From: Lineus longissimus
Taxonomy: Eukaryota; Nemertea; Pilidiophora; Heteronemertea; Lineidae
Direction of reading: 5' to 3'
Length of the DNA stretch: 64,000 bases
NCBI RefSeq assembly: GCF_910592395.1
Contig: NC_088310.1
Coordinates: 11,355,501-11,419,500 of the forward strand
Shown here: positions 42,597 through 64,000 of the stretch, one piece after another
How positions within the stretch are numbered: the first letter of the stretch is position 1
How the letters are laid out: each line of letters starts with the position of its first letter
Position numbers and translations under genes: made by a program
The notes under the pieces: generated by a model
Told to the model about the DNA's origin: nothing
What the model saw: the letters and a program-made list of their open reading frames with translations, nothing else
Database searches by the model: none

Positions 42597-45579
42597 ATGG
42601 TGGGGCAAGCCGGAGCGGCAGTCACAATGGCAGCCTCACCAGTAGTCTCTAACACATCTTTAGCTTCGATTGTCAGCGCCGAGGTGCTGGTTCTTCGGTG
42701 GGTTTACCTCATCACCGTTAAGTACGCCTGGATAGTCATCGTGGCCTTTGGGCTTTTTGGGAACTTGATGTCCATTGTGATAACACTACAAAAGGACAAC
42801 AGGCGAATATCAACATGTAACTACATGACTGCCCTAGCATTGGCTGATACGATTGTCCTCATCAACGAATCGGCTTGGAGAACATTTTTCCATGTTTGGA
42901 ACGCAGATTTTCCGACCGAGCTAGACATGCAGTGAGTTCGATTCTACTATTATTTTTGCCCCCCGCCAAAATACCATGCATTATAGGCCATGGTCCTAAT
43001 CCGGAATTTTGTCATTCGTCACAATATTTCGGGGTTTATAAAGTGAAAGTGCTCTAATTATGATTAACTATGGTGATATCTGACGAGTGTTTAATGCTAT
43101 CCATTCATGCCCGTCACGAAAATTTTTATGTTCGTGAATTATTGGGATCATGAGCCCAACATGCTGGTGAACGTCGCGGCAGATGTGTCTAAATCACACT
43201 GGCTACCTCTGGGTATGTTGAGTGAAACGTCTATTCCGAGCAGTTTTCTTCCTGAACCAGGTTAGTATGGTACAACGGATTTTCTTTCGCAATCATTTCC
43301 GGTTTTTACCTTGCTGAGATGACCATTGATAGACTGATCATAGTCAGATTTCCCATGGCTGCTCCCAGACTCTGCACAACACGCCGTGCCTGGTTGACCA
43401 TTTTCGTGACATTCATTGTGATATTTGGTCTCAATCTCTACGTAATGTTTAATTTCAAATATGTGCATAACAAGTATACAGGTAAGGAACATAATTTTAT
43501 CACCCGACTCCTTTGTGTTTGTTTTGCCTAGAGAATTCGCTTAATATCGGTTGTATAGATAGACACGGTACTTAATTAGTGCATTTGACGGATGATTAAA
43601 TTCTGGACAAAACCAGCTCGTTTTGGCGCGCCTGGCTTTAATATTGCATAAAGGTTAACCGCGACTCTAGAGCGGCATTCTCATTCATTTCACCGTCTGC
43701 CGACTCTCTAATGACACATCGCGTCCACACTGGTAACATCAGAAAGTTTGTTAGCAGCTCTATTGATACCGCCACCTGGAGTAGGTCTTGGCCGACTCTA
43801 GGAATTACCACAGGGCCTAATTTCAACGCACCAACCCTGAAGAGTACCCTCGACGTGTGGCCAAAGCTGTTAATCTGAAATTTACCTGAGCACGAACATA
43901 ATATATAAAGGGAAATAAAATTTTTTAGGTAATTTGTGTGTGTGCGGATCTTGACATCTATTCGCAATGCCCACAAACACGCTATCGACATGACTCAACA
44001 TGAGACGGTGAATATAGGCCTAGCAAAAGGTTTTTCAAAACAACATCACGGAGAAGAATCACCTTTGAGCCAACGTATGGCTGCAATTCTGACTGCTTTC
44101 CAAGAACTGTGCACCAAGCCGCAATGAAGCCGCAATGAAGCCGCATTCCAATTCGAATTCGTAGTGTGACGCCCTTAATACGCATTAAGCATTGCATTCG
44201 CAATGAGCTTGCGCATAGCGTAACTTCCCGCTTTTCCGCTCATGTTCCTGCCTTTTCACATTCACCCAAATGATGCGAACTCAGCATTTTCCGACGTTAC
44301 CATTGTCCATTTAACGAAAAATACATAAAGATAATTGTCATTAAAAAAACGCGACCATTCCAACATTTCCATAGCCACAGTTTGCTCTCGATCATGGGCG
44401 CATCCATTCAATCAGCTAACAGACCCAGCAAATGTAATTTGAAATTATCGTTTTTATTTAATGACAATTATGTTTATGTGTTTTTGGTTAAAAACGATCT
44501 TGAAACGAGCCGCTGATTTTGTTCCTTACAATTTAATTTAAATGTCGTCACTGAGTGTGCGAGTTTGCTTTATACCCCTCGTTTTTCGCTTGGTATGGAT
44601 CTCGTGAGACTAGAGTGGCATCCATCTTGGATCGAGCGCGGGAGTGAGTTTAACAATGCAATAATAGGTAGCTTATCTATACTGCGCATTCGGTTTAACC
44701 CGTTTTAATCCGAATTGAATGCGCATTTGGCCAAGTGTGACGCGGCCGGCTAGAAAGCGATTTAACCCAACCGTTTTCCGGAGGGCGCTCCGGAAAACTG
44801 TTTCAATTCGCCTTCAGTGTGAACGTAGTTGTGATACTGATCGTGTCAGTGAAGTAGGGTTTGTTCGCGTGTAGATTTGATGTAGATGCAGCGTGTATTA
44901 TTATGATCTCTGTCATATCGCGATTTCATTGATGTTTTGCTGATGACTCGTTATAAGCAGCCTTGGTTTTTTCTTCATCTTACTGCTACCTGCAGTAAAA
45001 AGCGCATTTAGACTGTTGATAAGGTGTGGTGTTTTTTCATGGAATTATAACCATTGGTGCGAGTTCTTTTCAGGACACGGAACATTGCTGATGACAGTAG
45101 AGAATGCTCCTGGACTGGAAAAGCTAGGAACCACAGCACAATTAGCTATTGGAACAATCTTACCATTTGTTATCATTGTATCATGCAACCTTTGGATTTT
45201 TAAAGTGTTACACAGGGCATCAAAGAAAAGCATTAGAATGGGCCTCAGCAAAGAGAGCCAGAAGATCCGAGAGAAAGAAACTACCTACTTGAGCAGGATG
45301 TTACTCCTTGTCAGCTTTGCATACGTCATAACGTCGATTCCTTTAAGAATTTTTGATGTCATCATAAGGATACCGGAAGTCCTGGCGCCGTACGACCTTC
45401 AAGAGGAGTACTGGAGTCTGCGGTATTATTGCCAGTATTTTGTAATGGAGTGTCTCTGGGAGATGAATTTTGGTATCAACTTTTACCTTTATTGTATCGG
45501 TGGTGGAAAGAAATACAGAAATGACGTCAGAGAGAGGTTACGAGTTATATTTCCTTGCTTTAGAAGGTTAACAGTCTAG
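42597..45579 (+). CDS. Rhodopsin-family GPCR, three exons
   Basis: Exons 42597-42931, 43261-43481 and 45074-45579 join in frame (353 residues); donors are gtgagt and gtaagg, acceptors end in ccag and tcag. TM1 has the GN motif (LFGNLMSIVITL), TM2 has LALAD, TM3 ends with TIDRLIIVRFP in place of DRY, TM6 has ITSIPL where CWxP is usual, and TM7 reads GINFYLYCIGGGKKYR in place of NPxxY. A conserved-looking loop with KKSIRMGL and KIREKETTYLSRM precedes TM6. The layout is that of class A peptide-type receptors; the ligand is unknown. I chose the ATG at 42597 because it gives a short extracellular N-terminus with an NTS glycosylation site; an in-frame ATG at 42498 is possible. It would sit in the plasma membrane and signal through G proteins. 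Confidence 0.8.
43482..45073 (+). other. Intron 2 of the GPCR gene
   Basis: It contains repeat-like material at 44100-44840, including a gaagccgcaat triplication (about 44118-44147) and a perfect short hairpin (gttttccgga/tccggaaaac, about 44772-44799). No coding signal. Confidence 0.5.
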
Positions 45580-47572: not shown

Positions 47573-49869
47573 GTGGGCATGTTTTCCTTTCCATTAATAA
47601 TTGCGTCCTTTCTGGCCTACTTGGGGTTTCCAGTATTTTTATTGTCATTGGTACCATTTTTTATATGGCGTACCCCTCCGACGGCATCCTTTGTCTCACC
47701 ACAAAGGAATGCGTCTGGTGGCGGGAAACGGGCCGCGAAGACGCCTAAACCCTCTTCCGGTTCCGTTTCCGGGCATATAACCCGGAGGTCTACCAAACCT
47801 CCCGCCACCACCCCTTCCGTCAGTCGAGTTCCGGTTCCGGCCGAGGCTGCGAAGGATGCGGGATCAGACATTATCAATGTCTGTGGCCCCAAGGGAGACT
47901 TACATCCAGTAAGTCTCCAAGGGTTTAATATACCCCAGACCTCAGGGAACCTTCCGGTTCCTCTGTCGTCCGCTCCCCCGAGTACAAGCCCTTTGTACCC
48001 GCGGGAGCACCCTGCTTTCGGTCCGCCGATTGCAGTTCCGGTTGCTGACGCGGGTTCCCGTTTATCAGTTTATCAGTAACCGAAGACTGGGGGTTTTTCT
48101 CAGTCTTTACTGCGAAATAACCCCAGTCCTCACGGACACAGTAGAGTAGGGACGGACTTTATAACGCCACCTCCGAAACGCCATGCGTCTTCGGTAACAG
48201 CGTTTCCGCCCTCCGTACCTCCTTCTAAAAGGGCAACCGGTAGCTCCATACCGGCGAAGGAGTAACGGGCATTTCCGGTTTCGGACTTCGTCCTGCCGGA
48301 AATGCAGGCACCTCCCTACGTTGGCCAACCTCTTAGGTGGAACCAACCGGAAGTGCCACCCCCTCCTCGTAGCAGAGGCGTCGTTCCCATGGAACGAGCT
48401 ACGCAGAGGGGACATCTGAACTCTGGTTCAGAATATGGGCATCTTCCGCTTCCGGAAGACCCATTCGCCCGTACATACGGCTTCGAGGGTTCGCTTATGC
48501 GCTAACCCTCGCCTCAACCGCCCGTCGTTGAGAGAAGCCGCACGTCGGGTCCGGAACCCGAGTCGGGACAGCAACTGTCCGAGCTCATCCAGATGGTAGC
48601 GGGTCTTACTGATAGACTCAGCCATCTGGAGCAGGGTTCCGGTTCCTCTGGTGCGCCTGGTCCCATCGGATACCCACCATCAGACTCCTTTATTTTAGAG
48701 GAACTTTCTGAGAACGAGAGTTCTCAGCCAGGCTACCGCTCCCCCAATCAGGAGGAGCTGTCACCAGAGGAGGCCAGTATCTTGTCGGATATGAGGACAC
48801 TCAGATCCTTGATCAGAGCATACCTCCCGCAGGATCTGTGCCCTACCCCGCCGGAACTGCCAGCCTTATCAACACCGACCTTTTCACTTTGGGAACAGGA
48901 AGTGGATCCCAATCCACAGGTTTCTCAGGGCTCCACTCGGGCACTTGAATTCCTTCCTTCCTCCCCGTCGGTGGTAGCAGTCTCTGAACTTTTGGAGCGT
49001 ACAATCAGAGACTCCCAAGGCGCCCACCAACGTACTCCGTCCCTGTCCTTCCGGCAGCCGGACCGGAAGCTTGGTGTAAACCGGGGAAGTTGTTCACGGC
49101 ACAACTTTCTCCCGTTAGGCAGTACCGCGCTGACTGTTATCGAGTCAGCTCGGCCGGCTGTCCAGCTGCAGCATCGACTTCCATATTAAAGGACGATGTA
49201 CAGCTGGACCAACTTGTGCCTAGGGTGACCTCCTCCTCGGCTTACCGAGAACTTAGAGCACAAGAGGGTCTGGCCAAAAACACGTTAGCGGTGCTCTCCT
49301 ACGCAGAGCACACTAACCTGGCCCTAGCCAGATCCCTAAAGGATAATGAGTCACTATCTGATGACACAAAATCGCTTGTGACATCCTTGTCACATTCGAT
49401 TAGGCACGCTATTGCTCTGTCCGCCAAGACCGCAGCAAATAGCGTCCTACTCCGTAGAGACGCCGCACTGGGCTCTCTCAATGTCATCAGATCCCTCCAG
49501 CTGGAACGGGCCTTAAGAACCGCTCCTATGGACGGTTCTTTCCTGTTCGCAGATTCTGTACAAGAGGCGGCTCAAGTACAGAAAGATTGGGACAAATTAT
49601 ATGCCCCCACTGCGACACAGAGGGCCAAGACCTCTCTACCTAACGCTAGAAAGATAGAGAGGCCCCAGCAGGCATCGGGTTCAATCCCGTACGCCAGGCA
49701 GGTCCTGCTTAGGCCTACCCCGCCTAGTCAGCCTGCTCCTGCTGGATCCTTCCGACGGGAAGCGGAGGGTCGCCGGACTGGAAAGAGGAAAAATACTTCC
49801 TCTAACCAGGGTGGATCCGGTCCGACTAGGCACTCCTTTCGTCCAAGGGGTGCAGGCCGGAAGAAGTGA
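47573..49869 (+). pseudogene. DIRS gag-like ORF with three in-frame TAA and one frameshift
   Basis: A Pro/Ser-rich frame runs from 47573 and is interrupted in the same frame by TAA at 48077, 48263 and 48503; after 48506 it continues (LSELIQMVAGLTDRLSHLEQ) to about 49100, then a frameshift leads to the last part (49090-49869), which has YRELRAQEGLAKNTLAVLSY and a basic C-terminus (GKRKN, FRPRGAGRKK). The last part resembles the conserved gag region of DIRS elements. The stop at 49867 overlaps the start of the RT ORF. Confidence 0.6.
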
Positions 49870-51973
49870 CTCCCCCCTCCTTTCTCCTCCCGGACGCAAA
49901 AAGGAGCCGACTCCGGTAGTCGGGGGCCGTCTGCAAAAAATTGCAGACGTTTGGGACGATTGGTGCCCCAAGGGGTCCCCAGTCCCAAACATGTTGAGGT
50001 ACGGAGTGAAGCTAGATTTCAACCGTACCCCCCCGACTACTATATATCCAACCCCAGTTCAGCCACCGAAGGACCCAGTCAAGGCCTCTGCCCTCCAAGC
50101 AGAGGTCGCGACATTACTGGAGAAGCAAGCTATCCAGGTCCTTCAAAATCCATGTTCCCCCGGCTTTTACAGCCACGTTTTCTTGGTTCCCAAGAAAGCA
50201 GGGACATGGAGGCTGATCATAGACCTTTCCAAGTTAAACACCTTCTTGAATGTTCCTCATTTCAGGATGGAAACCACCAGGTCTATAGCAACGGCGATAC
50301 AGCCCAACGATTGGGCGGTATCGATGGATTTAACGGATGCGTACTTACATGTACCGATCCATCCATACTATCAACACTTCCTTCGATTCCATTACGAAGG
50401 AAAGACGTATCAATTCAGGGCCCTGCCGTTCGGTCTGGCATCGGCACCCCTAATTTTTACGATGATAGTCACAGCCTTCGTCGCTCCCTTTCACGTGATG
50501 GGGTTCAAGCTCCATCACTACCTAGACGATTGGCTACTCCGTTGCAAATCGCGGGAACTACTACTGCAACAACTTCAGGTTCTAAAGCAAAAAGTAGTTT
50601 CCGCAGGTTGGATTATCAACGAAACAAAGTCAGAATTCATACCATCCCAAGACTTCGTTTACGTTGGAGTTCGGTTCCTTACGGCCATAGGGAAAATGCT
50701 GCCCCCCCTAGACAGGATAAAGAAAATTATTCATCTCGTCACAGAATTCAGAGGAAGGACTCAAGCTCCCGCAAGGCGATGCTTGAGCCTTTTGGGACTT
50801 CTGAATTCGGCAGCAGACCAAATCCCTCTTGGCCGTCTATATATGCGTCCCATCCAGATGTTTCTAATGTCTCTATGGAAACCCCACAGGGACCCATTAG
50901 ACAAGTTGGTATTGATACCTCAATACCTACTCAAGAACGTCTGGAACTTCTGGGAGTCGGAGACTCGTCTCCAAAGCGGTGTAGATCTTGCTCCACCGCC
51001 CCCAGAAGTGTCCCTGTTCACAGATGCTTCTCTACTCGGGTGGGAAGCACATCTGAACAGCGGGGACATGTCCATAAGGGGTCTATGGACAAGGGAGGAG
51101 ACCATTCTTTCAATAAATATATTGGAAATGAAGGCTGTCCTTCTTGCCGTGAGGGCTCTTTCCCTTCACCTGAAGAATCGGAGAGTAACCCTGTTCTCCG
51201 ACAATTCTACAGTAGTAGCATATGTCAGGAGACAGGGAGGCACAAAGTCCGGCATTCTTTGCCAGCTAACTTGGGAGCTTTACCATCTTTGTGCCGACCT
51301 TGGAGTATCGATATGTGCCAGACACATACCGGGCAAACGCAACATCCTTGCCGACGCCCTGTCCCGTCAGGACAAACTAGTCCAGACAGAGTGGACACTC
51401 CATCAGGAGATTGTAGACGACCTTTGTCGCCTTTGGCAATCTCCGAAGGTAGATCTGTTCGCCACCAGGCTGAACAATCGCCTTCCCATCTATTACTCTC
51501 CACTTCCGGACGAAGAGACCCTGGAAGTCGACAGCCTTACAGCCTCTTGGGTCGGGCTGAACGCATATGCGTTTCCACCCCTCCCTCTCATCCAACCAGT
51601 CCTGAACAAGATCTTGACCAGCCACCCGGTGAGAATAACTCTCATCGCACCTTGCTGGCCAAATCAGGCCTGGTTCCCAGCCTTGCTGGAGCTCCTGATA
51701 GACCACCCCAGGAGTCTTCCTACTTGGAAGCACCTCCTGTGGCACCCCCTGGGGAGATGCTACCACCAGAACCCTGGATTTTTCAAGTTTCACGCCTGGA
51801 ACTTATCCAGTTGCATCTCCACCAGAGAGGCTTTTCGGACATCGCTGTCAAACGCATGTCCACACCTCAAAGGGGGTCAACCCTTGATGTGTATCAAGGA
51901 AAGTGGTCTACCTTCACTTCCTGGTGCAGGGAGAACGGAGTTAATCCGACCTCTCCCTCTATATACAGATTAG
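49811..51973 (+). CDS. DIRS reverse transcriptase-RNase H
   Basis: 720 codons without interruption. RT: GFYSHVFLVPKKAGTWRLII (about 118-137), catalytic Asp in SMDLTDAY (173), LPFGLASAP (205-213), and HHYLDD (235-240) with both Asp kept. RNase H: FTDAS (Asp405), NILEMKAV (Glu439), LFSDNST (Asp464) and NILADALSR (Asp515), a full catalytic set. It is followed by the DIRS/Ngaro-typical PKVDLFATRLNNRLPIYYSP region. This enzyme copies the element RNA into the circular DNA used by the tyrosine recombinase. The start at 49811 overlaps gag by 59 nt. The last 70 codons overlap the recombinase in another frame. Confidence 0.9.
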   Translation: MDPVRLGTPFVQGVQAGRSDSPLLSPPGRKKEPTPVVGGRLQKIADVWDDWCPKGSPVPNMLRYGVKLDFNRTPPTTIYPTPVQPPKDPVKASALQAEVATLLEKQAIQVLQNPCSPGFYSHVFLVPKKAGTWRLIIDLSKLNTFLNVPHFRMETTRSIATAIQPNDWAVSMDLTDAYLHVPIHPYYQHFLRFHYEGKTYQFRALPFGLASAPLIFTMIVTAFVAPFHVMGFKLHHYLDDWLLRCKSRELLLQQLQVLKQKVVSAGWIINETKSEFIPSQDFVYVGVRFLTAIGKMLPPLDRIKKIIHLVTEFRGRTQAPARRCLSLLGLLNSAADQIPLGRLYMRPIQMFLMSLWKPHRDPLDKLVLIPQYLLKNVWNFWESETRLQSGVDLAPPPPEVSLFTDASLLGWEAHLNSGDMSIRGLWTREETILSINILEMKAVLLAVRALSLHLKNRRVTLFSDNSTVVAYVRRQGGTKSGILCQLTWELYHLCADLGVSICARHIPGKRNILADALSRQDKLVQTEWTLHQEIVDDLCRLWQSPKVDLFATRLNNRLPIYYSPLPDEETLEVDSLTASWVGLNAYAFPPLPLIQPVLNKILTSHPVRITLIAPCWPNQAWFPALLELLIDHPRSLPTWKHLLWHPLGRCYHQNPGFFKFHAWNLSSCISTREAFRTSLSNACPHLKGGQPLMCIKESGLPSLPGAGRTELIRPLPLYTD

Positions 51974-52485
51974 TTGATTTCTTTATTGAATTATTCACGG
52001 AAAGACAACTATCTGTCACGGCTATAAAAGGGTACAAGTCCGCCATCGCTTCTACCCTCCGTGTTTTAAGCACCTGGGATCTTCGTTGGGAGGACCAAAT
52101 AACCCCTCTTTTCAGAGGAATGTTATTAGAGCGTCCTAGACCGTTTCACAACACCCCTAAATGGGATCTTTCTGTTGTCCTTAAGGTGCTCAGGAGGCAT
52201 CCTTTTGAACCCATGTCTATTTCATCCATGAAATATCTGACACTCAAAACGGTCTTTCTAGTAGCCTTGGCTACCGCCCAACGGAGATCAGAGCTCCATG
52301 CACTTTCTTTTAAGAAGCTGGCTTTTAGAGAGGGAGGGGAGGTTATCCTGGCTTTCATACCAGGCTTTCTGGCGAAGAACCAGGGACCGGCTGCCTCTCG
52401 GCCCCCGGTTACTATTCCCTCTCTGTCAGGAACGATCTCTTATGATCTTCGTGACAGAACTTTATGTCCCGTCCCATCGCTAACC
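51757..52485 (+). pseudogene. DIRS tyrosine recombinase, C-terminally truncated
   Basis: From the ATG at 51757 the frame reads PWIFQVSRLELI, GSTLDVYQGKWSTFTSWC, TAIKGYKSAIAS, LLERPRP and KTVFLVALATAQRRSELHAL; the Arg of the last block is the first catalytic Arg of tyrosine recombinases. The frame then enters the 49-bp repeat array at 52485, right after DRTLCPV. The catalytic H-x-x-R and the nucleophilic Tyr are missing. The open frame that continues to 52698 is repeat sequence only. Confidence 0.8.
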
Positions 52486-54737
52486 CGCAACCTCGCCATG
52501 CTCCAACAGCCTCAAATTGATATCGGGTGGGTGATTATATCATCGCTAACCCGCAACCTCACGATGTTTCAACAGCCTCAACGTGATATCGGGTGTGTGA
52601 TAATACCATCGCTAACCTGCAACCTCGCCATTCCTCAAGTGGTGGGTGATAATACCATCGCTAACCCGCAACCTCGCCATGTTTCAACGAGTGGGTGATA
52701 ATGCCATCGATTACCTGTAACCTCGCCATTCCTCAACGGGTGGGTGATAATACCATCACTAACCCACAACCTCGCCATGTTTCAACGGGTGGGTGATAAT
52801 GCCATCGCTTACCTGTAACCTCGCCATTCTTCAACGGGTGGGTGATAATAGCATCGCTAACCTGTAACCTCGCCATGTTTCAACGGGTGGGTGATAATGC
52901 CATCGCTTACCTGTAACCTCGCCATTCCTCAACGGGTGGGTGATGATACCATCGCTAACCTGTAACCTCGCCATTCCTCAACGGGTGGGTGATAATACCA
53001 TCGCTAACCCACAACCTCGCCATGCTTCAACGGGTGGATGATAATACCATCGCTAACCTGTAACCTCGCCATTCCTCAACGGGTGGGTGATAATACCATC
53101 GCTAACCCACAACCTCGCCATGCTTCAACGGGTGGGTGATAATACCATCGCTAACCCACAACCTCGCATGCTTCAACGGGTGGGTGATAATACCATCGCT
53201 AACCCACAACCTCGCCATGCTTCAACGGGTGGGTGATAATACCATCGCTAACCTGTAACCTCGTCATTCCTCAACGGGTGGGTGATAATACCATCGCTAA
53301 CCCACAACCTCGCCATGCTTCAACGGGTGGGTGATAATACCATCGCTAACCCACAACCTCGCCATTCCTCAACGGGTGGGTGATAATACCATCGCTAACC
53401 CACAACCTCGCCATGCTTCAATGGGTGGGTGATAATACCATCGCTAACCCACAACCTCGCATGCTTCAACGGGTGGGTGATAATACCATCGCTAACCCAC
53501 AACCTCGCCATGCTTCAACGGGTGGGTGATAATACCATCGCTAACCCACAACCTCGCCATGCTTCAACGGGTGGGTGGTAATACCATCGCTAACCTGTAA
53601 CCTCGTCATTCCTCAACGGGTGGGTGATAATACCATCGTTAACCCACAACCTCGCCATGCTTCAACGGGTGGGTGATAATACCATCGCTAACCCACAACC
53701 TCGCCATGCTTCAACGGGTGGGTGATAATACCATCGCTAACCCACAACCTCACCATGCTTCAATGGGTGGGTGATAATACCATCGCTAACCTGTAACCTC
53801 GCCATTCCTCAACGGCTGGGTGATAATACCATCGCTAACCCACAACCTCGCCATGTTTCAACGGGTGGGTGATAATACCATCGCTAACCCACAACCTAGC
53901 CATGCTTCAACGGGTGGGTGATAATACCATCGCTAACCCACAACCTCGCCATGCTTCAACGGGTGGGTGATAATTACATCGCTAACCTGTAACCTCGCCA
54001 TTCCTCAACGGGTGGGTGATAATACCATCGCTAACCCACAACCTCGCCATGCTTCAACGGGTGGGTGATAATACCATCGCTAACCTGTAACCTCGTCATT
54101 CCGCAACGGCTGGGTGATAATACCATCGCTAACCCACAACCTCGCCATGCTTCAACGGGTGGGTGATAATACCCTCGCTAACCCACAACCTCGCCATGCT
54201 TCAATGGGTGGGTGATAATACCATAGCTAACCTATAACCTCGCCATTCCTCAACGGGTGGGTGATAATACCATCGCTAACCCACAACCTCGCCATGCTTC
54301 AACGGGTGGGTGATAATACCATCGCTAACCTGTAACCTCGTCATTCCTCAACGGATGGGTGATAATACCATCGCTAACCCACAACCTCGCCATGCTTCAA
54401 CGGGTGGGTGATAATACAATCGCTAACCCACAACCTCGCCATGCTTCAACGGGTGGGTGATAATACCATCGCTAACCCGCAACCTCGCCATGTTTCAACG
54501 GGTGGGTGATAATACCATCGCTAACCCACAACCTCGCCATGCTTCAACGGGTGGGTGATAATACCATCACTAACCCACAACCTCGCCATGCTTCAACGGG
54601 TGGGTGATAATACCATCGCTAACCCACAACCTCGCCATGCTTTAACGGGTGGGTGATAATACCATCGCTAACCCACAACCTCGCCATTCCTCAACGGATG
54701 GGTGATAATACCATCGCTAACCCACAACCTCGCCATG
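52486..54737 (+). repeat. 49-bp minisatellite array 1, about 46 units
   Basis: The monomer contains gggtgggtgataatacc, atcgctaaccc and acctcgccatgcttcaac. Two main variants alternate (cccacaacc...catgcttc and cctgtaacc...cattcctc). The first three monomers are distinctive (extra agcctcaaattgatat-type segment) and recur at the start of arrays 2 and 3. No spacers, so not CRISPR. Confidence 0.95.
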
Positions 54738-55013
54738 CCGTACTTCACTGCCGTGGAAGCAAATGTGATCACGGAAATTGGGGCGGAAAGCACTCAAAAG
54801 GTGTTGATTTCGTTTAATGTTTCGATTTTTTCAAACAACAGTGTTTATGTCATTGACTCGATTTGCTTGGCATCGTCGATATTTGATTCAAACATGTTTT
54901 TTCGGCCTTCGATGTGGCGACACACTCGTTTCGCCCAGTCCACGCGTCTAAAAATAGCTCGGTGGCTTTTGGCGCGAAATGTGAATGAAACAACAGGGGC
55001 GAAACCTTTTGAT
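54738..55013 (+). promoter_or_regulatory. Leader between array 1 and ORF1
   Basis: Frame is not conserved between the two units here (small indels near 54817 and 54990 relative to 60100 and 60270), so it is probably untranslated and may hold the promoter. No TATA box or known site is evident. Confidence 0.45.
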
Positions 55014-55679
55014 ATGAACGAAACTGTACCAAGTAGAATGCCATTGACAGGAAGAAATCGAAGAACAGTGGCGGATGAGGCAAAACGGATTGGCGTGGCA
55101 AACCAATTCTATGAAAATTTAGCTGATGCTCCTCAAGAAGAACTGGAGGCTGGCAATCTGATGCGCTGTCCATCACAGGTCGTTCTGCGCAAAGCGGTGT
55201 CAGAAATAGTGGCGAAGGAAATCCTTCATCATGATTTCATTCAAGAGGTGATGTTGCTAAAACGCGTGTATTTGGATGAAGATGGAGATGTTCCAGGTAT
55301 GGGATATATTCAGAACATTTCTGCGGACCCATTCTACGTTCATTTGTATTCCCGGAGGCAAGTTGACCTGATGTGTGACTTGTCCAAAAATGGCCAGTTG
55401 GATCTATATTTTGATGCAACAGGAAGCATTTTGCAGAAGATACCCGAGCAGCACAGATCACTCTTGTACTCACTTGTCATAAAGGATGTAGAGGACCTGC
55501 CTCCAATCTCTGTTGCTGACTTTTTGACAACTGACCATACCGTCCCAGCTCCATGCCATTTTCACAGCTGCATTCTCAGAGTAGGTGTAGTTCAGCAAAA
55601 GCATCGCATAAATCCGAGGAAAGTGGAAACCGACTGGAGCTGGTCCCTCATTCAAAGCAGTCTCCAAACATTTAACTGA
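55014..55679 (+). CDS. Transposase-like ORF1, copy 1 (ends at in-frame TGA)
   Basis: 221 residues from the ATG at 55014 (MNETVPSRM), chosen because the frame upstream is not conserved in copy 2. It has a basic N-terminus, then a region with YFDATGSILQKI (Asp134) and VETDWSWSLIQ (Asp207). The spacing and context fit the first and second Asp of an RNase H-like DDE transposase of the MULE-like kind. TGA follows at 55677, and ATG of ORF2 comes immediately after in the same frame, so the predicted catalytic core is split by one stop. Copy 2 differs at three residues and has the same stop. Confidence 0.6.
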   Translation: MNETVPSRMPLTGRNRRTVADEAKRIGVANQFYENLADAPQEELEAGNLMRCPSQVVLRKAVSEIVAKEILHHDFIQEVMLLKRVYLDEDGDVPGMGYIQNISADPFYVHLYSRRQVDLMCDLSKNGQLDLYFDATGSILQKIPEQHRSLLYSLVIKDVEDLPPISVADFLTTDHTVPAPCHFHSCILRVGVVQQKHRINPRKVETDWSWSLIQSSLQTFN

Positions 55680-56628
55680 ATGTCAGTCAAAGCGTACCTC
55701 AATATATCAATGAGTGTACACCAACGTACCTACAGTTTGGTGGGGGAATTGACGGTGGTACATCTGTGCACCGCACATATGATGCACAATTTAGCAATAA
55801 ACCTAAGAGACACAACCAAGAAGATGAAACCTCTGAGAAAAATGCTGATGCAGATGTTTCCCTGTTTAATTAATACAACTGGGCTAAAGGAAGCATCTGT
55901 GGTATTTAAAGACTGCTGCCTCATTCTCAAGAGTCAACGCCTGAGCAAGTCTGTGAGTGAGGCCGTAAAGAGAATTACGGACATGGCACCAGCACTGAAC
56001 CAAGAAGATGACGAAGAGGTGACGAACCCTGGGCCTATCGGTGATGGCGATCATGATCCATTCATCGATGGTGGAACAATTCGAGAAGCATCACCATTCA
56101 CCGAGTTCTTTCAGAAGATTGCCGATGGCATCGAACTCAATGAAGATAAAGATGATGAGCCAAACCCGCACAAGTCGGAGGAGCACTTGGATCTCTTTCT
56201 TCGCAAATATATGCCCATCTACCCTTTGATCAGTGGGATGCTCCTTGGAAATCTGGAACGATATCTACCAGATGCCATTGAAGCTCGAGAAGGCGAAGAT
56301 GAAGAGAAGGAGACCCGTTGAAGCATGGTTTAAAACCATCAAAATAGATGTGCTACGGAGAAAGCGTGGGCTGAGGCCTGCTCTCTTTATAAAAGCACTC
56401 AGGAAAACAATGCGGGGTAGGCTGAGAGAAAGAGACTTTCCGCACATTCAGAAGGGAAAGAAGGGCAGAAAGACGCCGAAGAAGAATAAGACAAAGGGGG
56501 TGTATCAAAAATCGAGGTCCAAGAAAAGAGGACAAAAAGCAAGGCGAGGGAGTAAGCAGCCAGAGAGTGATACAGCAGATAGTATCACTATAGAATTATC
56601 CGAAGAGACCTGGTGCAGAGATAAATAG
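55680..56628 (+). pseudogene. Transposase-like ORF2, copy 1, frameshifted by a 17-nt deletion
   Basis: It starts MSVKAYLNIS directly after the ORF1 stop. It has a C-x-x-H motif in VVHLCTAHMMHNLA (Cys30, His33), as found between the second Asp and the Glu in MULE-type transposases, then an acidic region and a very basic tail (KKGRKTPKKNKTKG, RSKKRGQKARRG). Compared with copy 2, 17 nt are missing at about 56314, giving a stop at 56319; the downstream frame (from 56233) carries the basic tail to TAG at 56626. Allowing for the indel, the intact length is 321 residues in both copies. Confidence 0.6.
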
Positions 56629-56655: not shown

Positions 56656-58479
56656 ATGAAACAGTCTGCACGAAAAAAAGAAAAAAGTGGTGCAGGTAAA
56701 GAGAAGAAGCAGTGTGCAGACAAAGATCAGGTCAAACGGACTAATGGAGATATAAAGAAGCCAGCTAGAACACCAAGGGTAGCGGCTGGCCATGCCAAAG
56801 CATCAGTTAAAAATCAGGTTCAAGAACATTCCGGGCCTAAGGCATTGAGGGTTGACCGCGGTTTTAGAAAAATGGGTAACCGGAGGAACAACTGTTGGTT
56901 AAATGCTTCAGTTCAAGCTATCATGTCGACTGCAGCCGGAAAAGGACTAAGGAGTGCACCAAAAGATATGTTTACAGATGAAGAAGATCGTGGGAAAGCT
57001 GTGCTTCCACTCCTTGTAAAATACGGTGATCACCATGGTGACACAATACCCTGGTCAGTAATCGAAAGAACCCTTAGAAAAGTGACAAAAAGTAGTACCA
57101 ATTTAGTTCTTGGTCGACAAAATGATGCACAAGAATTCTTCCAGAGATGCCTTGGTTCTATGATGCATGCATTGCAAATAAACAACTTTCCCATAAGTCA
57201 AACAATCCGATGTCACGAATGCGGCAGAGTAGGAGAGCCAGTGAATACTGAATCCACAGAGCTGATTGTCAACGTGTCCAAGGCCGGAGTAACATATCTA
57301 CAGGATGTAATAGATAATTACATCAGAGAAGAACCGTTGCCCGATTGTAAGTGCCCCTGTAATGGAGGTATTATGCACAGGGAAACTGCAATACGTCGCC
57401 CACCAAGTGTTCTTGTTTTTGTGATTTCACGAAATCAAGGTGAAGCGGGTGGCAAGTTGAAATCCCGTGTTGAACCTGCAGATGTGTTGACTATGAAACA
57501 CCTGCAGGGAATATCATCCTTTTCGCTGCGGTCCATAATTGTCCATCGTGGCGCGAGTGCCCACGTCGGCCACTACGTCACTCATGTAAAGGAAGAAGAC
57601 GGAACGTGGGTACGCTGCGATGATGATAGCATTGATGTTATTCCGAAAGACAAGGAAATATCTAATCAAAGCTACGTCATCATATATGAAAAGCAAAAGG
57701 CGCAAGCGAGTCCCAACAGCGAGCTGAAGGCTAATGTGGAGGTCAACCAGCAGACAGAAACGAAAGGTTGCAGCAGCACCACAAGCCCCGCCACTGAAGA
57801 AGATCTTCAACGACAAGCCCTTGTTTCTGTGCTTGGAAGCATCAGAAGCAAAGCGGAAGAGACCATCGTAGAATTCGGTACACATAGCCTGACCAACAGA
57901 GATATGCAAAGGATACTGGGAATCGGTTGGCTCAAAGACAAAGTAATAGATGCATATCTTAGTCTGATATGTAACAGAAGCAAGATGGAAGGATTCCCAA
58001 GGGTGTTTGCTTTCCAAAGTCAATGGTTCGTGCAGTTGAGTAAAGAGGACAAGACCCCAAAGGATTTGATAAAATGGGCAAAGAACGAGAATCTGATGAA
58101 TTACGAGTTGATATTCTTTCCAGTAAACACAGGATGTCATTGGTTCTTGATCGCTGTCGACATGGTGCGGAAAACCGCCACGCTCTATGACTCTCTCGAA
58201 ATTCCTGGATGCATGGATGGAAGACTGGATTGTGCAAGACTTGCAATCAAAGTAGTTGAAGCCAACATAGAGGCAAACACACCGTCGATTGAATACTCAT
58301 TCACTGCACATCAGGCACTGGTCACACAACAAACAAATACGAATGACTGTGGCGCATATGTTTGCTATTTTGCGCGATGTGCCAGTGCCAAAGTACGTAG
58401 CGACATGAAAGGTTCCGTTGAGACGCAACAAGAGAGAGCAAATACTATAAGCAGTCTGTACAGAAACAAGCTAGATTAA
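56656..58479 (+). CDS. USP-Ulp1 dual-protease fusion, copy 1
   Basis: 607 residues, uninterrupted. Residues 1-65: Lys-rich. USP domain (about 66-346): Cys box GNRRNNCWLN with Cys80, QNDAQEFF (155-162), zinc-ribbon-like CHEC (186-189) and CKCPC (231-235), His box GHYVTHV with His306, CDDDSIDVI with Asp322/323, and the closing SYVIIYEK. Ulp1/C48 domain (about 405-590): WLKD (425-428), CHWFLIAVD with His495, YDSL with Asp512, QQTNTNDCGAYVC with Gln559 and Cys565. By family knowledge the first half would cleave ubiquitin conjugates and the second SUMO/NEDD8-type conjugates. It lies 27 nt after the TAG of ORF2, in the same frame. Compared with copy 2 it differs at five residues; here the usual WLND is WLKD. 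Start chosen at the first ATG. Confidence 0.85.
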   Translation: MKQSARKKEKSGAGKEKKQCADKDQVKRTNGDIKKPARTPRVAAGHAKASVKNQVQEHSGPKALRVDRGFRKMGNRRNNCWLNASVQAIMSTAAGKGLRSAPKDMFTDEEDRGKAVLPLLVKYGDHHGDTIPWSVIERTLRKVTKSSTNLVLGRQNDAQEFFQRCLGSMMHALQINNFPISQTIRCHECGRVGEPVNTESTELIVNVSKAGVTYLQDVIDNYIREEPLPDCKCPCNGGIMHRETAIRRPPSVLVFVISRNQGEAGGKLKSRVEPADVLTMKHLQGISSFSLRSIIVHRGASAHVGHYVTHVKEEDGTWVRCDDDSIDVIPKDKEISNQSYVIIYEKQKAQASPNSELKANVEVNQQTETKGCSSTTSPATEEDLQRQALVSVLGSIRSKAEETIVEFGTHSLTNRDMQRILGIGWLKDKVIDAYLSLICNRSKMEGFPRVFAFQSQWFVQLSKEDKTPKDLIKWAKNENLMNYELIFFPVNTGCHWFLIAVDMVRKTATLYDSLEIPGCMDGRLDCARLAIKVVEANIEANTPSIEYSFTAHQALVTQQTNTNDCGAYVCYFARCASAKVRSDMKGSVETQQERANTISSLYRNKLD

Positions 58480-58576
58480 AATGAATAAAAAATCTATGCG
58501 TGCTGCTTCATGTATTATTGCTGCTGTGTATACGTCAAGATCTTTTCGCTAATTAAACTATCATGTCAAAGTTAGG
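58480..58576 (+). other. 3' flank of the USP-Ulp1 gene, copy 1
   Basis: It contains aataaa at 58485, a possible polyadenylation signal 6 nt after the stop. The flank recurs at 63780-63876 with one or two differences and leads directly into the next array. Confidence 0.5.
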
Positions 58577-60026
58577 TCGGGTGGGTGATAATACCATCGC
58601 TAACCCGCAACCTCGCCATGCTCCAACAGCCTCAAATTGATATCGGGTGGGTGATTATATCATCGCTAACCCGCAACCTCACAATGTTTCAACAGCCTCA
58701 ACGTGATATTGGGTGTGTGATAATACCATCGCTAACCTGCAACCTCGCCATTCCTCAAGTGGTGGGTGATAATACCATCGCTAACCCGCAACCTCGCCAT
58801 GTTTCAACGAGTGGGTGATAATGCCATCGATTACCTGTAACCTCGCCATTCCTCAACGGGTGGGTGATAATACCATCGCTAACCCACAACCTCGCCATGT
58901 TTCAACGGGTGGGTGATAATGCCTTCGCTTACCTGTAACCTCGCCATTCCTCAACGGGTGGGTGATAATAGCATCGCTAACCTGTAACCTCGCCATGTTT
59001 CAACGGGTGGGTGATAATGCCATCGCTTACCTGTAACCTCGCCATTCCTCAACGGGTGGGTGATAATACCATCGCTAACCTGTAACCTCGCCATTCCTCA
59101 ACGGGTGGGTGATAATACCATCGCTAACCCACAACCTCGCCATGCTTCAACGGGTGGGTGATAATACCATCGCTAACCCACAACCTCGCCATGCTTCAAC
59201 GGGTGGGTGATAATACCATCGCTAACCCACAACCTCGCCATGCTTCAACGGGTGGGTGATAATTACATCGCTAACCTGTAACCTCGCCATTCCTCAACGG
59301 GTGGGTGATAATACCATCGCTAACCCACAACCTCGCCATGCTTCAACGGGTGGGTGATAATACCATCGCTAACCTGTAACCTCGTCATTCCGCAACGGGT
59401 GGGTGATAATACCATCGCTAACCCACAACCTCGCCATGCTTCAACGGGTGGGTGATAATACCCTCGCTAACCCACAACCTCGCCATGCTTCAATGGGTGG
59501 GTGATAATACCATAGCTAACCTGTAACCTCACCATTCCTCAACGGGTGGGTGATAATACCATCGCTAACCCACAACCTCGCCATGCTTCAACGGGTGGGT
59601 GATAATACCATCGCTAACCTGTAACCTCGTCATTCCTCAACGGATGGGTGATAATACCATCGCTAACCCACAACCTCGCCATGCTTCAACGGGTGGGTGA
59701 TAATACCATCGCTAACCCACAACCTCGCCATGCTTCAACGGGTGGGTGATAATACCATCGCTAACCCGCAACCTCGCCATGTTTCAATGGGTGGGTGATA
59801 ATACCATCGCTAACCCACAACCTCGCCATGCTTCAACGGGTGGGTGATAATACCATCACTAACCCACAACCTCGCCATGCTTCAACGGGTGGGTGATATT
59901 ACCATCGCTAACCCACAACCTCGCCATGCTTCAACGGGTGGGTGATAATACCATCGCTAACCCACAACCTCGCCATTCCTCAACGGGTGGGTGATAATAC
60001 CATCGCTAACCCACAACCTCGCCATG
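58577..60026 (+). repeat. 49-bp minisatellite array 2, about 29 units
   Basis: Same monomers as array 1. The first dozen or so monomers and the last fifteen or so match array 1 in order, variant by variant; array 1 has roughly 16-17 extra monomers in the middle. Confidence 0.95.
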
Positions 60027-60297
60027 CCGTACTTCACTGCCGTGGAAGCAAATGTGATCACGGAAATTGGGTCGGAAAGCACTCAAAAGGTGTTGATTTC
60101 GTTGCTTCGATTTTTTCAAACAACAGTGTTTATGTCATTGACTCGATTTGCTTGGCATCGTCGATATTTGATTCAAACATGTTTTTTCGGCCTTCGATGT
60201 GGCGACACACTCGTTTCGCCCAGTCCACGCGTCTAAAAATAGCTCGGTGGCTTTTGGCGCGAAATGTGAAGAAACAACAAGGGCGAAACCTTTTGAT

Positions 60298-60963
60298 ATG
60301 AACGAAACTGTACCAAGTAGAATGCCATTGACAGGAAGAAATCGAAGAACAGTGGCGGATGAGGCAAAACGGATTGGCGTGGTAAACCAATTCTATGAAA
60401 ATTTAGCTGATGCTCCTCAAGAAGAACTGGAGGCTGGCAATCTGACGCGCTGTCCATCACAGGTCGTTCTGCGCAAAGCGGTGTCAGAAATAGTGGCGAA
60501 GGAAATCCTTCATCATGATTTCATTCAAGAGGTGATGTTGCTAAAACGCGTGTATTTGGATGAAGATGGAGATGTTCCAGGTATGGGATATATTCAGAAC
60601 ATTTCTGCGGACCCATTCTACGTTCATTTGTATTCCCGGAGGCAAGTTGACCTGATGTGTGACTTGTCCAAAAATGGCCAGTTGGATCTATATTTTGATG
60701 CAACAGGAAGCATTTTGCAGAAGATACCCGAGCAGCACAGATCACTCTTGTACTCACTTGTCATAAAGGATGTAGAGGACCTGCCTCCAATCTCTGTTGC
60801 TGACTTTTTGACAACTGACCATACCGTCCCAGCTCTATGCCATTTTCACAGCTGCATTCTCAGAGTAGGTGTAGTTCAGCAAAAGCATCGCATAAATCCG
60901 AGGAAAGTGGAAACCGACTGGAGCTGGTCCCTCATTCAAAGCAGTCTCCAAACATTTAACTGA
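60298..60963 (+). CDS. Transposase-like ORF1, copy 2
   Basis: 221 residues with the same Asp134 and Asp207 motifs as copy 1 and three substitutions (Val for Ala29, Thr for Met50, Leu for Pro180). It ends at the same in-frame TGA (60961-60963), followed at once by the ATG of ORF2. The leader before it (60027-60297) differs from copy 1 by small indels, supporting this start. Confidence 0.6.
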   Translation: MNETVPSRMPLTGRNRRTVADEAKRIGVVNQFYENLADAPQEELEAGNLTRCPSQVVLRKAVSEIVAKEILHHDFIQEVMLLKRVYLDEDGDVPGMGYIQNISADPFYVHLYSRRQVDLMCDLSKNGQLDLYFDATGSILQKIPEQHRSLLYSLVIKDVEDLPPISVADFLTTDHTVPALCHFHSCILRVGVVQQKHRINPRKVETDWSWSLIQSSLQTFN

Positions 60964-61928
60964 ATGTCAGTCAAAGCGTACCTCAATATATCAATGAGTG
61001 TACACCAACGTATCTACAGTTTGGTGGGGGAATTGACGGTGGTACATCTGTGCACCGCACATATGATGCACAATTTAGCAATAAACCTAAGAGACACAAC
61101 CAAGAAGATGAAACCTCTGAGAAAAATGCTGATGCAGATGTTTCCCTGTTTAATTAATACAACTGGGCTAAAGGAAGCATCTGTGGTATTTAAAGACTGC
61201 TGCCTCATTCTCAAGAGTCAACGCCTGAGCAAGTCTGTGAGTGAGGCCGTAAAGAGAATTACGGACATGGCACCAGCACTGAACCAAGAAGATGACGAAG
61301 AGGTGACGAACCCTGGGCCTATCGGTGATGGCGATCATGATCCATTCATCGATGGTGGAACAATTCGAGAAGCATCACCATTCACCGAGTTCTTTCAGAA
61401 GATTGCCGATGGCATCGAACTCAATGAAGATAAAGATGATGAGCCAAACCCGCACAAGTCGGAGGAGCACTTGGATCTCTTTCTTCGCAAATATATGCCC
61501 ATCTACCTTTGATCAGTGGGATGCTCCTTGGAAATCTGGAACGATATCTACCAGATGCCATTGAAGCTCGAGAAGGCGAAGATGAAGAGAAGGAGACGCG
61601 TGACACCAATGCACCCGTTGAAGCATGGTTTAAAACCATCAAAATAGATGTGCTACGGAGAAAGCGTGGGCTGAGGCCTGCTCTCTTTATAAAAGCACTC
61701 AGGAAAACAATGCGGGGTAGGCTGAGAGAAAGAGACTTTCCGCACATTCAGAAGGGAAAGAAGGGCAGAAAGACGCCGAAGAAGAATAAGACAAAGGGGG
61801 TGTGTCAAAAATCGAGGTCCAAGAAAAGAGGACAAAAAGCAAGGCGAGGGAGTAAGCAGCCAGAGAGTGATACAGCAGATAGTATCACTATAGAATTATC
61901 CGAAGAGACCTGGTGCAGAGATAAATAG
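60964..61928 (+). pseudogene. Transposase-like ORF2, copy 2, frameshifted by one lost base
   Basis: It matches ORF2 of copy 1, including Cys30-x-x-His33, but one C is missing at about 61505, so the first frame stops at 61512. The second frame (61509-61928) continues through the region deleted in copy 1 (about 61595-61611) to the basic tail and TAG at 61926. The two copies carry different lesions, so the parent element had an intact ORF2. Confidence 0.6.
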
Positions 61929-61955: not shown

Positions 61956-63779
61956 ATGAAACAGTCTGCACGAAAAAAAGAAAAAAGTGGTGCAGGTAAA
62001 GAGAAGAAGCAGTGTGCAGACAAAGATCAGGTCAAACGGACTAATGGAGATAAGAAGAAGCCAGCTAGAACACCAAGGGTAGCGGCTGGCCATGCCAAAG
62101 CATCAGTTAAAAATCAGGTTCAAGAACAATCCGGGCCTAAGGCATTGAAGGTTGACCGCGGTTTTAGAAAAATGGGTAACCGGAGGAACAACTGTTGGTT
62201 AAACGCTTCAGTTCAAGCTATCATGTCGACTGCAGCCGGAAAAGGACTAAGGAGTGCACCAAAAGATATGTTTACAGATGAAGAAGATCGTGGGAAAGCT
62301 GTGCTTCCACTCCTTGTAAAATACGGTGATCACCATGGTGACACAATACCCTGGTCAGTAATCGAAAGAACCCTTAGAAAAGTGACAAAAAGTAGTACCA
62401 ATTTAGTTCTTGGTCGACAAAATGATGCACAAGAATTCTTCCAGAGATGCCTTGGTTCTATGATGCATGCATTGCAAATAAACAACTTTCCCATAAGTCA
62501 AACAATCCGATGTCACGAATGCGGCAGAGTAGGAGAGCCAGTGAATACTGAATCCACAGAGCTGATTGTCAACGTGTCCAAGGCCGGAGTGACATATTTA
62601 CAGGATGTAATAGATAATTACATCAGAGAAGAACCGTTGCCCGATTGTAAGTGCCCCTGTAATGGAGGTATTATGCACAGGGAAACTGCAATACGTCGCC
62701 CACCAAGTGTTCTTGTTTTTGTGATTTCACGAAATCAAGGTGAAGCGGGTGGCAAGTTGAAATCCCGTGTTGAACCTGCAGATGTGTTGACTATGAAACA
62801 CCTGCTGGGAATATCATCCTTTTCGCTGCGGTCCATAATTGTCCATCGTGGCGCGAGTGCCCACGTCGGCCACTACGTCACTCATGTAAAGGAAGAAGAC
62901 GGAACGTGGGTACGCTGCGATGATGATAGCATTGATGTTATTCCGAAAGACAAGGAAATATCTAATCAAAGCTACGTCATCATATATGAAAAACAAAAGG
63001 CGCAAGCGAGTCCCAACAGCGAGCTGAAGGCTAATGTGGAGGTCAACCAGCAGACAGAAACGAAAGGTTGCAGCAGCACCACAAGCCCCGCCACTGAAGA
63101 AGATCTTCAACGACAAGCCCTTGTTTCTGTGCTTGGAAGCATCAGAAGCAAAGCGGAAGAGACCATCGTAGAATTCGGTACACATAGCCTGACCAACAGA
63201 GATATGCAAAGGATACTGGGAATCGGCTGGCTCAATGACAAAGTAATAGATGCATATCTTAGTCTGATATGTAACAGAAGCAAGATGGAAGGATTCCCAA
63301 GGGTGTTTGCTTTCCAAAGTCAATGGTTCGTGCAGTTGAGTAAAGAGGACAAGACCCCAAAGGATTTGATAAAATGGGCAAAGAACGAGAATCTGATGAA
63401 TTACGAGTTGATATTCTTTCCAGTAAACACAGGATGTCATTGGTTCTTGATCGCTGTCGACATGGTGCGGAAAACCGCCACGCTCTATGACTCTCTCGAA
63501 ATTCCTGGATGCATGGATGGAAGACTGGATTGTGCAAGACTTGCAATCAAAGTAGTTGAAGCCAACATAGAGGCAAACACACCGTCGATTGAATACTCAT
63601 TCACTGCACATCAGGCACTGGTCACACAACAAACAAATACGAATGACTGTGGCGCATATGTTTGCTATTTTGCGCGATGTGCCAGTGCCAAAGTACGTAG
63701 CGACATGAAAGGTTCCGTTGAGACGCAACAAGAGAGAGCAAATACTATAAGCAGTCTGTACAGAAACAAGCTAGATTAA
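61956..63779 (+). CDS. USP-Ulp1 dual-protease fusion, copy 2
   Basis: 607 residues, all catalytic residues as in copy 1 (Cys80, His306, Asp322/323; His495, Asp512, Gln559, Cys565). The five differences are Lys33, Gln58, Lys65, Leu284 and Asn427. Asn427 gives WLND, the usual Ulp1 form, so copy 2 is probably the better representative. It follows TAG at 61926 by 27 nt in the same frame, as in copy 1. Confidence 0.85.
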   Translation: MKQSARKKEKSGAGKEKKQCADKDQVKRTNGDKKKPARTPRVAAGHAKASVKNQVQEQSGPKALKVDRGFRKMGNRRNNCWLNASVQAIMSTAAGKGLRSAPKDMFTDEEDRGKAVLPLLVKYGDHHGDTIPWSVIERTLRKVTKSSTNLVLGRQNDAQEFFQRCLGSMMHALQINNFPISQTIRCHECGRVGEPVNTESTELIVNVSKAGVTYLQDVIDNYIREEPLPDCKCPCNGGIMHRETAIRRPPSVLVFVISRNQGEAGGKLKSRVEPADVLTMKHLLGISSFSLRSIIVHRGASAHVGHYVTHVKEEDGTWVRCDDDSIDVIPKDKEISNQSYVIIYEKQKAQASPNSELKANVEVNQQTETKGCSSTTSPATEEDLQRQALVSVLGSIRSKAEETIVEFGTHSLTNRDMQRILGIGWLNDKVIDAYLSLICNRSKMEGFPRVFAFQSQWFVQLSKEDKTPKDLIKWAKNENLMNYELIFFPVNTGCHWFLIAVDMVRKTATLYDSLEIPGCMDGRLDCARLAIKVVEANIEANTPSIEYSFTAHQALVTQQTNTNDCGAYVCYFARCASAKVRSDMKGSVETQQERANTISSLYRNKLD

Positions 63780-63876: not shown

Positions 63877-64000
63877 TCGGGTGGGTGATAATACCATCGC
63901 TAACCCGCAACCTCGCCATGCTCCAACAGCCTCAAATTGATATCGGGTGGGTGATTATATCATCGCTAACCCGCAACCTCACAATGTTTCAACAGCCTCA
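63877..64000 (+). repeat. 49-bp minisatellite array 3, start only
   Basis: The first two to three monomers are identical in type and order to the start of array 2, showing that a third unit begins and continues beyond the window. Confidence 0.9.

What the first reader, a model, noticed from the sequence alone, without database searches (positions are those of the whole stretch)
56656..58479. A mobile unit encodes a deubiquitinase-type and a deSUMOylase-type protease in one protein
Seen: one 607-residue frame holds a full USP domain (Cys80, QNDAQEFF, two Cys pairs, His306, Asp322/323) followed by a full Ulp1/C48 domain (His495, Asp512, Gln559, Cys565). Known: Ulp1 proteases occur in several transposon groups, and USP and Ulp1 are separate families. 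Inference: a fusion of both, carried next to a transposase-like gene, could let the element strip two kinds of host modification from its own transposase or from host silencing proteins. I do not know of a described element with this pair.
Basis: partly seen in the sequence, partly recalled or inferred. Interest (0 to 1): 0.88.

Follow-up and report, generated by a model that had tools for sequence, protein, structure and literature searches.

The report
Transposase fused to two modifier-stripping proteases

Summary
The 607-aa frame at 56656-58479 has a USP domain (Pfam UCH, E=3e-25) and an Ulp1 domain (Peptidase_C48, E=6e-18; nearest solved structure SENP1). A near-identical copy lies at 61956-63779. 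But it is not a self-standing protein: it is the 3' part of a longer gene whose transposase-like part is broken in this window (TGA at 55677, TAG at 56626, one further deletion per copy, 5' end replaced upstream of 55017). At 5 of the 8 junctions examined (C2, four on C20) the frame runs on from the transposase-like part towards the USP. A separate source record, P0005, encodes transposase-USP in one frame. A second lineage, 37-40% identical, keeps both domains and the catalytic residues, but carries a stop codon in the USP. Reading: a transposase-USP-Ulp1 fusion from an unclassified DNA-transposon group; its likely role, removing ubiquitin and SUMO from the transposase or nearby host proteins, is inferred and untested. 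Transposons with Ulp1, OTU, VTD or a single USP-type domain are in print; nine literature searches found none with USP and Ulp1 together. New variant of a known kind.

The parts
56656..58479 (+). Open frame of 607 aa with USP and Ulp1 domains (copy 1); 3' part of a longer gene
56875..57687 (+). USP (UCH) domain, residues 74-344
   Evidence: Pfam PF00443, E=3.1e-25; PDB USP36, E=7.2e-10
57928..58407 (+). Ulp1 (Peptidase_C48) domain, residues 425-584
   Evidence: Pfam PF02902, E=6.1e-18; PDB SENP1, E=1.8e-21
55017..56628 (+). Remains of the transposase-like part and basic linker (copy 1): TGA at 55677-55679, 17-nt deletion near 56315, TAG at 56626-56628
54739..55016 (.). Sequence found in the C3 copies in place of the N-terminal coding part that C2, C17 and C20 copies have
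52590..54738 (.). 49-bp minisatellite, 43.9 units, upstream of unit 1 (starts about 52474 with 66-bp units)
58566..60027 (.). Minisatellite between the two units: 66-bp units, then 26.9 units of 49 bp
60301..61928 (+). Remains of the transposase-like part of copy 2: same TGA and TAG, plus a 1-nt deletion matching position 56224 of copy 1
61956..63779 (+). Second USP-Ulp1 frame (copy 2), 99% identical
63877..64000 (.). Start of the next minisatellite array; runs on past the window end

Best explanation
The frame is the C-terminal part of a decayed transposon gene. Better-preserved copies point to one polypeptide of roughly 1,670 residues: acidic repeats, a Cys/His cluster, a transposase-like core, a basic linker, a USP domain and a SENP-type Ulp1 domain. 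Shown: the two domains; the continuous frame on C2 from the acidic repeats to about USP residue 142, where one frameshift breaks it; sense codons at 5 of 8 junctions; the in-frame transposase-USP protein P0005; and conservation of the catalytic residues in a second lineage. Inferred: that the core is a DDE-type transposase (motif reading only), that both proteases are active, and that the fusion carries them to the element's own DNA-protein complex, where they remove ubiquitin (stabilising the transposase or changing histone marks) and SUMO (opposing SUMO-dependent silencing or SUMO on the transposase).
For: Both domains over curated cut-offs in both window copies. Continuous 1,216-aa frame on C2. 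TAG in 3 of 3 C3 junctions but a sense codon in 5 of 5 others. P0005, 806 aa, transposase-like core and USP in one frame. C9 lineage, 37-40% identical, keeps C80, H306, D322/323, H495, D512, Q559, C565. Window against C9: pS 0.80/0.79 with pN 0.43 (USP, 262 codons) and 0.38 (Ulp1, 175 codons). Repeated family on at least five contigs. Precedents: Ulp1 or OTU at the C end of Ginger1 transposases and a C19 domain in a Trichomonas transposase (PMC2836005, passages); active Helentron deubiquitinase domains (PMC9741609, passages).
Against: No intact full-length copy was seen. C9 has a TAG in the USP (at the Q155 codon) and a frame change between transposase-like part and USP. P0005 ends before Ulp1, and P0004 and P0006 show no USP. 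The third lineage (C17b, C10) gives no Ulp1 hit in the two 10-kb loci searched. The transposase-like core matches no Pfam family and no MULE profile. Many within-family dN/dS values are near 1, and the linker's pN (0.50, 39 codons) is only a little above the USP's. Activity, substrates and expression are untested; structure models failed.
Confidence: 0.6

Rival explanations
1. The element makes two proteins from adjacent or overlapping frames: a transposase and a separate USP-Ulp1 accessory protease. The TAG on C3 and the frame change on C9 are real gene ends.
For: TAG in 3 of 3 C3 copies with a Met 27 bases after the stop codon; on C9 the two frames overlap by 59 nt in different frames.
Against: 5 of 5 other junctions are open in the same frame; P0005 is fused in frame; the C3 copies carry other lesions in the same region.
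Confidence: 0.2
2. The proteases act mainly on the element's own long protein, as a self-cleaving polyprotein, rather than on ubiquitin and SUMO.
For: The product would be a long multi-domain fusion; viral maturation proteases related to C48 are known (recalled).
Against: The Ulp1 domain is nearest to SENP1 and SENP2, and the other domain to USPs; no cleavage site was sought or found.
Confidence: 0.1
3. On C3 the USP-Ulp1 frame has outlived the transposase and is kept by the host as a separate protein.
For: The 607-aa frame is open in 3 of 3 C3 copies while the transposase part is broken in all three; the nonsynonymous share is low in some pairs (one-sided p 0.02-0.15 in five pairs, not corrected).
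Against: Few changes; Fisher test against the transposase part p=0.23; the copies are recent duplicates, so an open frame is expected for a time; no expression data.
Confidence: 0.06

Closest known systems
Ginger1 DNA transposons (PMC2836005; passages read)
   Same: C-terminal ubiquitin/SUMO-type protease domain (Ulp1 or OTU) on the transposase.
   Different: Gypsy-integrase-like core; one protease type per element in the table seen; no USP. No integrase hit here.
Trichomonas vaginalis IS5-like protein XP_001314237.1 (mentioned in PMC2836005)
   Same: Transposase domain together with a Peptidase C19 (USP-type) domain.
   Different: transposase_11 core; no Ulp1 mentioned. Sequence not compared here.
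Mutator-like elements with Ulp1 (PMC2836005; L026 in this genome)
   Same: Ulp1 domain in a DNA transposon; order of motifs in the core looks similar by eye (recalled pattern).
   Different: No Pfam MULE hit; negative profile comparison; Ulp1 here is far nearer to SENP1 than to the Ulp1 of L024-L028 (22-24% identity); no USP seen there.
Rehavkus and aphid Phantom elements (PMC6446971; passages read)
   Same: Minisatellite after the transposase frame.
   Different: They have TIRs, and Rehavkus a PHD finger; neither was found here. Ulp1, ubiquitin and protease do not occur in that paper's main text.
Helentrons with VTD or OTU deubiquitinase domains (PMC9741609; passages read)
   Same: A transposon that carries one or two types of deubiquitinase; tested zebrafish VTDs reacted with ubiquitin (two of three also with NEDD8) probes.
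   Different: Rolling-circle Rep/helicase element; VTD/OTU and not USP/Ulp1; the tested ones did not react with SUMO probes.

Membership tests
USP deubiquitinase (C19, PF00443) | Profile match over the domain | tested here: met
   89.7 bits, cut-off 23.9
USP deubiquitinase (C19, PF00443) | Catalytic Cys, His, Asp in order | tested here: met
   C80, H306, D322/D323; conserved on C9
USP deubiquitinase (C19, PF00443) | Cleaves ubiquitin | not testable with these tools
   no assay
Ulp1/SENP (C48, PF02902) | Profile match over the domain | tested here: met
   65.9 bits copy 1, 68 bits copy 2, cut-off 20.7
Ulp1/SENP (C48, PF02902) | Catalytic His, Asp, Gln, Cys | tested here: met
   H495, D512, Q559, C565 align with SENP1; conserved on C9
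Ulp1/SENP (C48, PF02902) | Cleaves SUMO | not testable with these tools
   no assay
Mutator-like element | MULE transposase domain (PF10551) | tested here: not met
   no hit in the frames scanned; none of 127 listed MULE places (150 of 235 candidates scored) coincides; hhalign prob 0.7% against five MULE frames, two pairs of which look like near-duplicates
Mutator-like element | TIRs and 8-11-bp target duplications | tested here: inconclusive
   nothing better than a 12-nt exact or a 19-nt 89% inverted match on C2/C9; ends not fixed
Ginger | Integrase-type DDE core | tested here: not met
   no integrase family in Pfam scans of the transposase-like frames
Rehavkus | Minisatellite before the 3' TIR | tested here: inconclusive
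   array follows the coding part on C3, C2 and C9, but no TIR fixed
Rehavkus | PHD finger in the transposase | tested here: not met
   no PHD hit
Helitron/Helentron | Rep/helicase protein | tested here: not met
   no such family in the frames scanned; not every frame of every copy was scanned
DDE transposase (general) | RNase H-like fold with D, D, E | tested here: inconclusive
   acidic residues and a C/H motif conserved in alignments, read by eye; structure model pLDDT 35.6

The most novel reading that the evidence does not exclude
An undescribed group of eukaryotic DNA transposons has a transposase that is itself a dual eraser: one chain cuts DNA, removes ubiquitin through a USP domain and removes SUMO through a SENP-type domain, so the element brings its own anti-silencing or transposase-stabilising activity to the sites it binds.
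Probability: 0.35. Interest if true: 0.8.

Novelty: new variant of a known kind. Interest (0 to 1): 0.6.

Why it matters
Ubiquitin- and SUMO-removing domains turn up in unrelated transposons, and why is open. A transposase that carries one of each, conserved in two diverged lineages, would make the question testable with a single protein: which modifier must be removed, and from what, for the element to move or escape silencing. It also points to a transposase group that current Pfam models do not recognise.

Tried and rejected
Considered and set aside. (a) Chance or artefact: both domains pass curated cut-offs and recur in diverged copies. (b) Helitron/Helentron: no Rep/helicase in the frames scanned. 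(c) PIF/Harbinger: on C2 and C9 the array is followed by a further gene, and the last ~75 nt of that module match the terminal repeats of a Harbinger element (L042, DDE_Tnp_4). The array-plus-gene module also stands on C11 without the core in the 8.5 kb fetched, so I do not count it as part of the element with confidence. (d) A constant 3' module: it is 93% alike on C2 and C9 over 4.5 kb against 37-40% for the protease halves, which suggests exchange of 3' parts. C2 and C11 also stay alike past the supposed end, so that end is not a clean boundary there. (e) Viral relatives: one scan of viral contigs with P0004 gave none.

Led nowhere. Protein searches with P0001 and with A5 returned nothing at E<=0.001; A5 did not return P0005, one of its own members within the length range, so these blanks are no evidence of absence. 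Structure models were too poor (mean pLDDT 30.2 and 35.6), so no fold search was run. Rfam on 801 bases at the C2 5' end was empty.

Full report
What was checked. The frame 56656-58479 (+) translates to 607 residues and a TAA. hmmscan against Pfam gives UCH at E=3.1e-25 over residues 74-344 and Peptidase_C48 at E=6.1e-18 over 425-584; a Peptidase_C98 match (16.6 bits) is below its cut-off of 27. phmmer against PDB chains puts the C-terminal half nearest to SENP1 (E=1.8e-21), then SENP2. The N-terminal part searched alone is nearest to USP36 (E=7.2e-10).

A second copy. The window holds another near-identical frame at 61956-63779, head to tail at a distance of 5.3 kb. The units are separated by a 49-bp minisatellite: 43.9 units at 52590-54738 and 26.9 at 58711-60027. 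Copy 1 has Lys at residue 427 where copy 2, C2 and C9 have Asn.

The neighbouring gene is the other part of the same gene. The 607-aa protein has 22 matches there: 14 belong to this family (three on C3, two pieces on C2, four on C20, two on C17, and one each on C9, a second C17 place and C10), and 8 are weak matches to one domain only (such counts are lower bounds). Six other places (one on C2, four on C20, one on C17) match the window unit only from position 55017 on; upstream of it they share a different sequence that continues the protein N-terminally. On C2 a 1,216-aa open frame runs from acidic repeats through the transposase-like region to about USP residue 142, where a 1-nt deletion breaks it; a 466-aa frame holds the rest. 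Junctions found by an exact 17-mer in the sequences compared: TAG in 3 of 3 C3 copies, a sense codon in the same frame in 5 of 5 others (C2 one, C20 four; two of the C20 copies end soon after). C17 lacks this stretch, and C9 is too diverged for this test. All three C3 copies also carry a TGA at the place of 55677; copy 1 has a 17-nt deletion near 56315 and copy 2 a 1-nt deletion at 56224. The 607-aa frame is therefore the part of a longer gene that is still open on C3.

A separate record. A profile of the C9 and C2 transposase-like regions found 3 proteins at E<=0.001 among 5,252 candidates. P0005 (806 aa, 9 member sequences, 3.9-kb contig, about 50% identical to C9) goes in one frame from the transposase-like region into a USP domain (UCH E=3.7e-5, 23.9 bits, exactly at the cut-off, residues 592-801) and ends there. 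P0004 and P0006 show no USP. P0005 supports transposase-USP, not Ulp1; its organism is unknown.

Other lineages. On C9 a relative (37-40% identity) has a 708-aa transposase-like frame followed by USP and Ulp1, with a TAG at the Q155 codon and a change of frame between the two parts. The catalytic residues are conserved; of the second Cys group (CKCPC) two of three Cys align. pS is 0.80 and pN 0.43 for the USP (262 codons), 0.79 and 0.38 for Ulp1 (175), 0.79 and 0.50 for the linker (39). With pS saturated this shows long-term constraint, only moderately stronger in the domains than in the linker. A third lineage (second C17 place and C10, 98% alike over 686 nt) has a USP, and on C17 a transposase-like region upstream, but tblastn finds no Ulp1 in the two 10-kb loci. 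The pair is thus shown in two lineages of this genome. Within the window family dN/dS runs from 0.14 to above 1, mostly as expected of decaying copies.

What kind of transposase. The transposase-like regions of the two lineages are homologous: 22% identity, hhalign 98.9% over 551 columns. They match no Pfam family above cut-off and none of the 127 listed MULE-domain places of this genome (150 of 235 candidates scored). A profile comparison with five MULE frames (two pairs of them look like near-duplicates) is negative at 0.7%; three shuffled controls gave 0.0-0.2%; the profiles are shallow. By eye the order D(ATG), D, C/H motif, E and an N-terminal Cys/His cluster resemble Mutator/hAT-type transposases; this is recalled pattern reading. 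The AlphaFold models are too poor to test it. A minisatellite after the transposase is described for Rehavkus and aphid Phantom elements (PMC6446971, passages), which is a likeness and no proof of membership.

Mobility. Copies on C2, C9, C17 and C20 share no flanks with each other in the comparisons made beyond the shared parts, as expected of a mobile family, but no terminal repeats or target duplications could be fixed, and C2 shares its 3' surroundings with C11. The C3 copies differ: the window and a locus 170 kb upstream share at least 3.2 kb of the adjacent DIRS-like element at 99.7% and the same junction with the array. They come from a segmental duplication; the two units in the window are a tandem one, perhaps made by recombination in the arrays (inference).

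Mechanism. Best reading: a transposase that carries a USP and a SENP-type domain and uses them where it binds. Removing ubiquitin would stabilise the transposase or alter histone ubiquitin; removing SUMO would counter SUMO-dependent silencing or act on the transposase or repair factors. The architecture is shown in pieces; activity, substrate and benefit are inferred. Ginger transposases carry Ulp1 or OTU, a Trichomonas transposase carries a C19 domain, and a role of the ubiquitin pathway in transposition was proposed (PMC2836005, passages). Helentron VTD domains are active on ubiquitin probes and not on SUMO probes (PMC9741609, passages).

Novelty. Nine full-text searches of open papers listed no paper that I could recognise as describing a transposon protein with both a USP and an Ulp1 domain; I saw listings, and passages of four papers. 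Repbase and most subscription papers are not in that library. I rate it a new variant of a known kind.

Noticed in passing
window 48506-52473 (+): DIRS-like retroelement (RVT_1 E=1.5e-23 in frame 49658-51973; tyrosine-recombinase-like C end by eye) that runs straight into the 49-bp array; the same junction occurs on L009.
   Followed up: partly
L013 (C2), L021 (C9), L043 (C11): After the array an SGNH-hydrolase-like gene (by eye; no Pfam hit above cut-off) and a 3' end; the last ~75 nt match Harbinger-type terminal repeats at 29 further listed places.
   Followed up: partly
L015-L017 (C20:9530001-9558000): Four partial head-to-tail copies of the element, three of them about 2.5 kb apart.
   Followed up: partly
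L026 3375-5264 (+); L024, L025, L027, L028: Other Ulp1-bearing frames; L026 also has a SWIM match just below its cut-off (19.3 against 19.6 bits), as in Mutator-like elements; about 22-24% identical to the Ulp1 here.
   Followed up: partly
L014 about 1750-1830 (C2 5' region): A 78-nt stretch at the shared 5' boundary recurs at 39 other listed places at 82-87% identity (40 of 206 candidates scored); no Rfam match.
   Followed up: no
L013/L014 flanks (C2): An 11-nt direct repeat (seen by eye) lies on both sides of the C2 copy, outside the shared parts; could be a target duplication or chance.
   Followed up: no
window 10444-13647 (-): LINE-type frame of 1,067 aa with endonuclease (E=1.1e-11) and reverse transcriptase (E=6.5e-28) domains.
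   Followed up: no
window 44947-45579 (+): 210-aa frame that looks like part of a seven-helix receptor (by eye, not searched).
   Followed up: no
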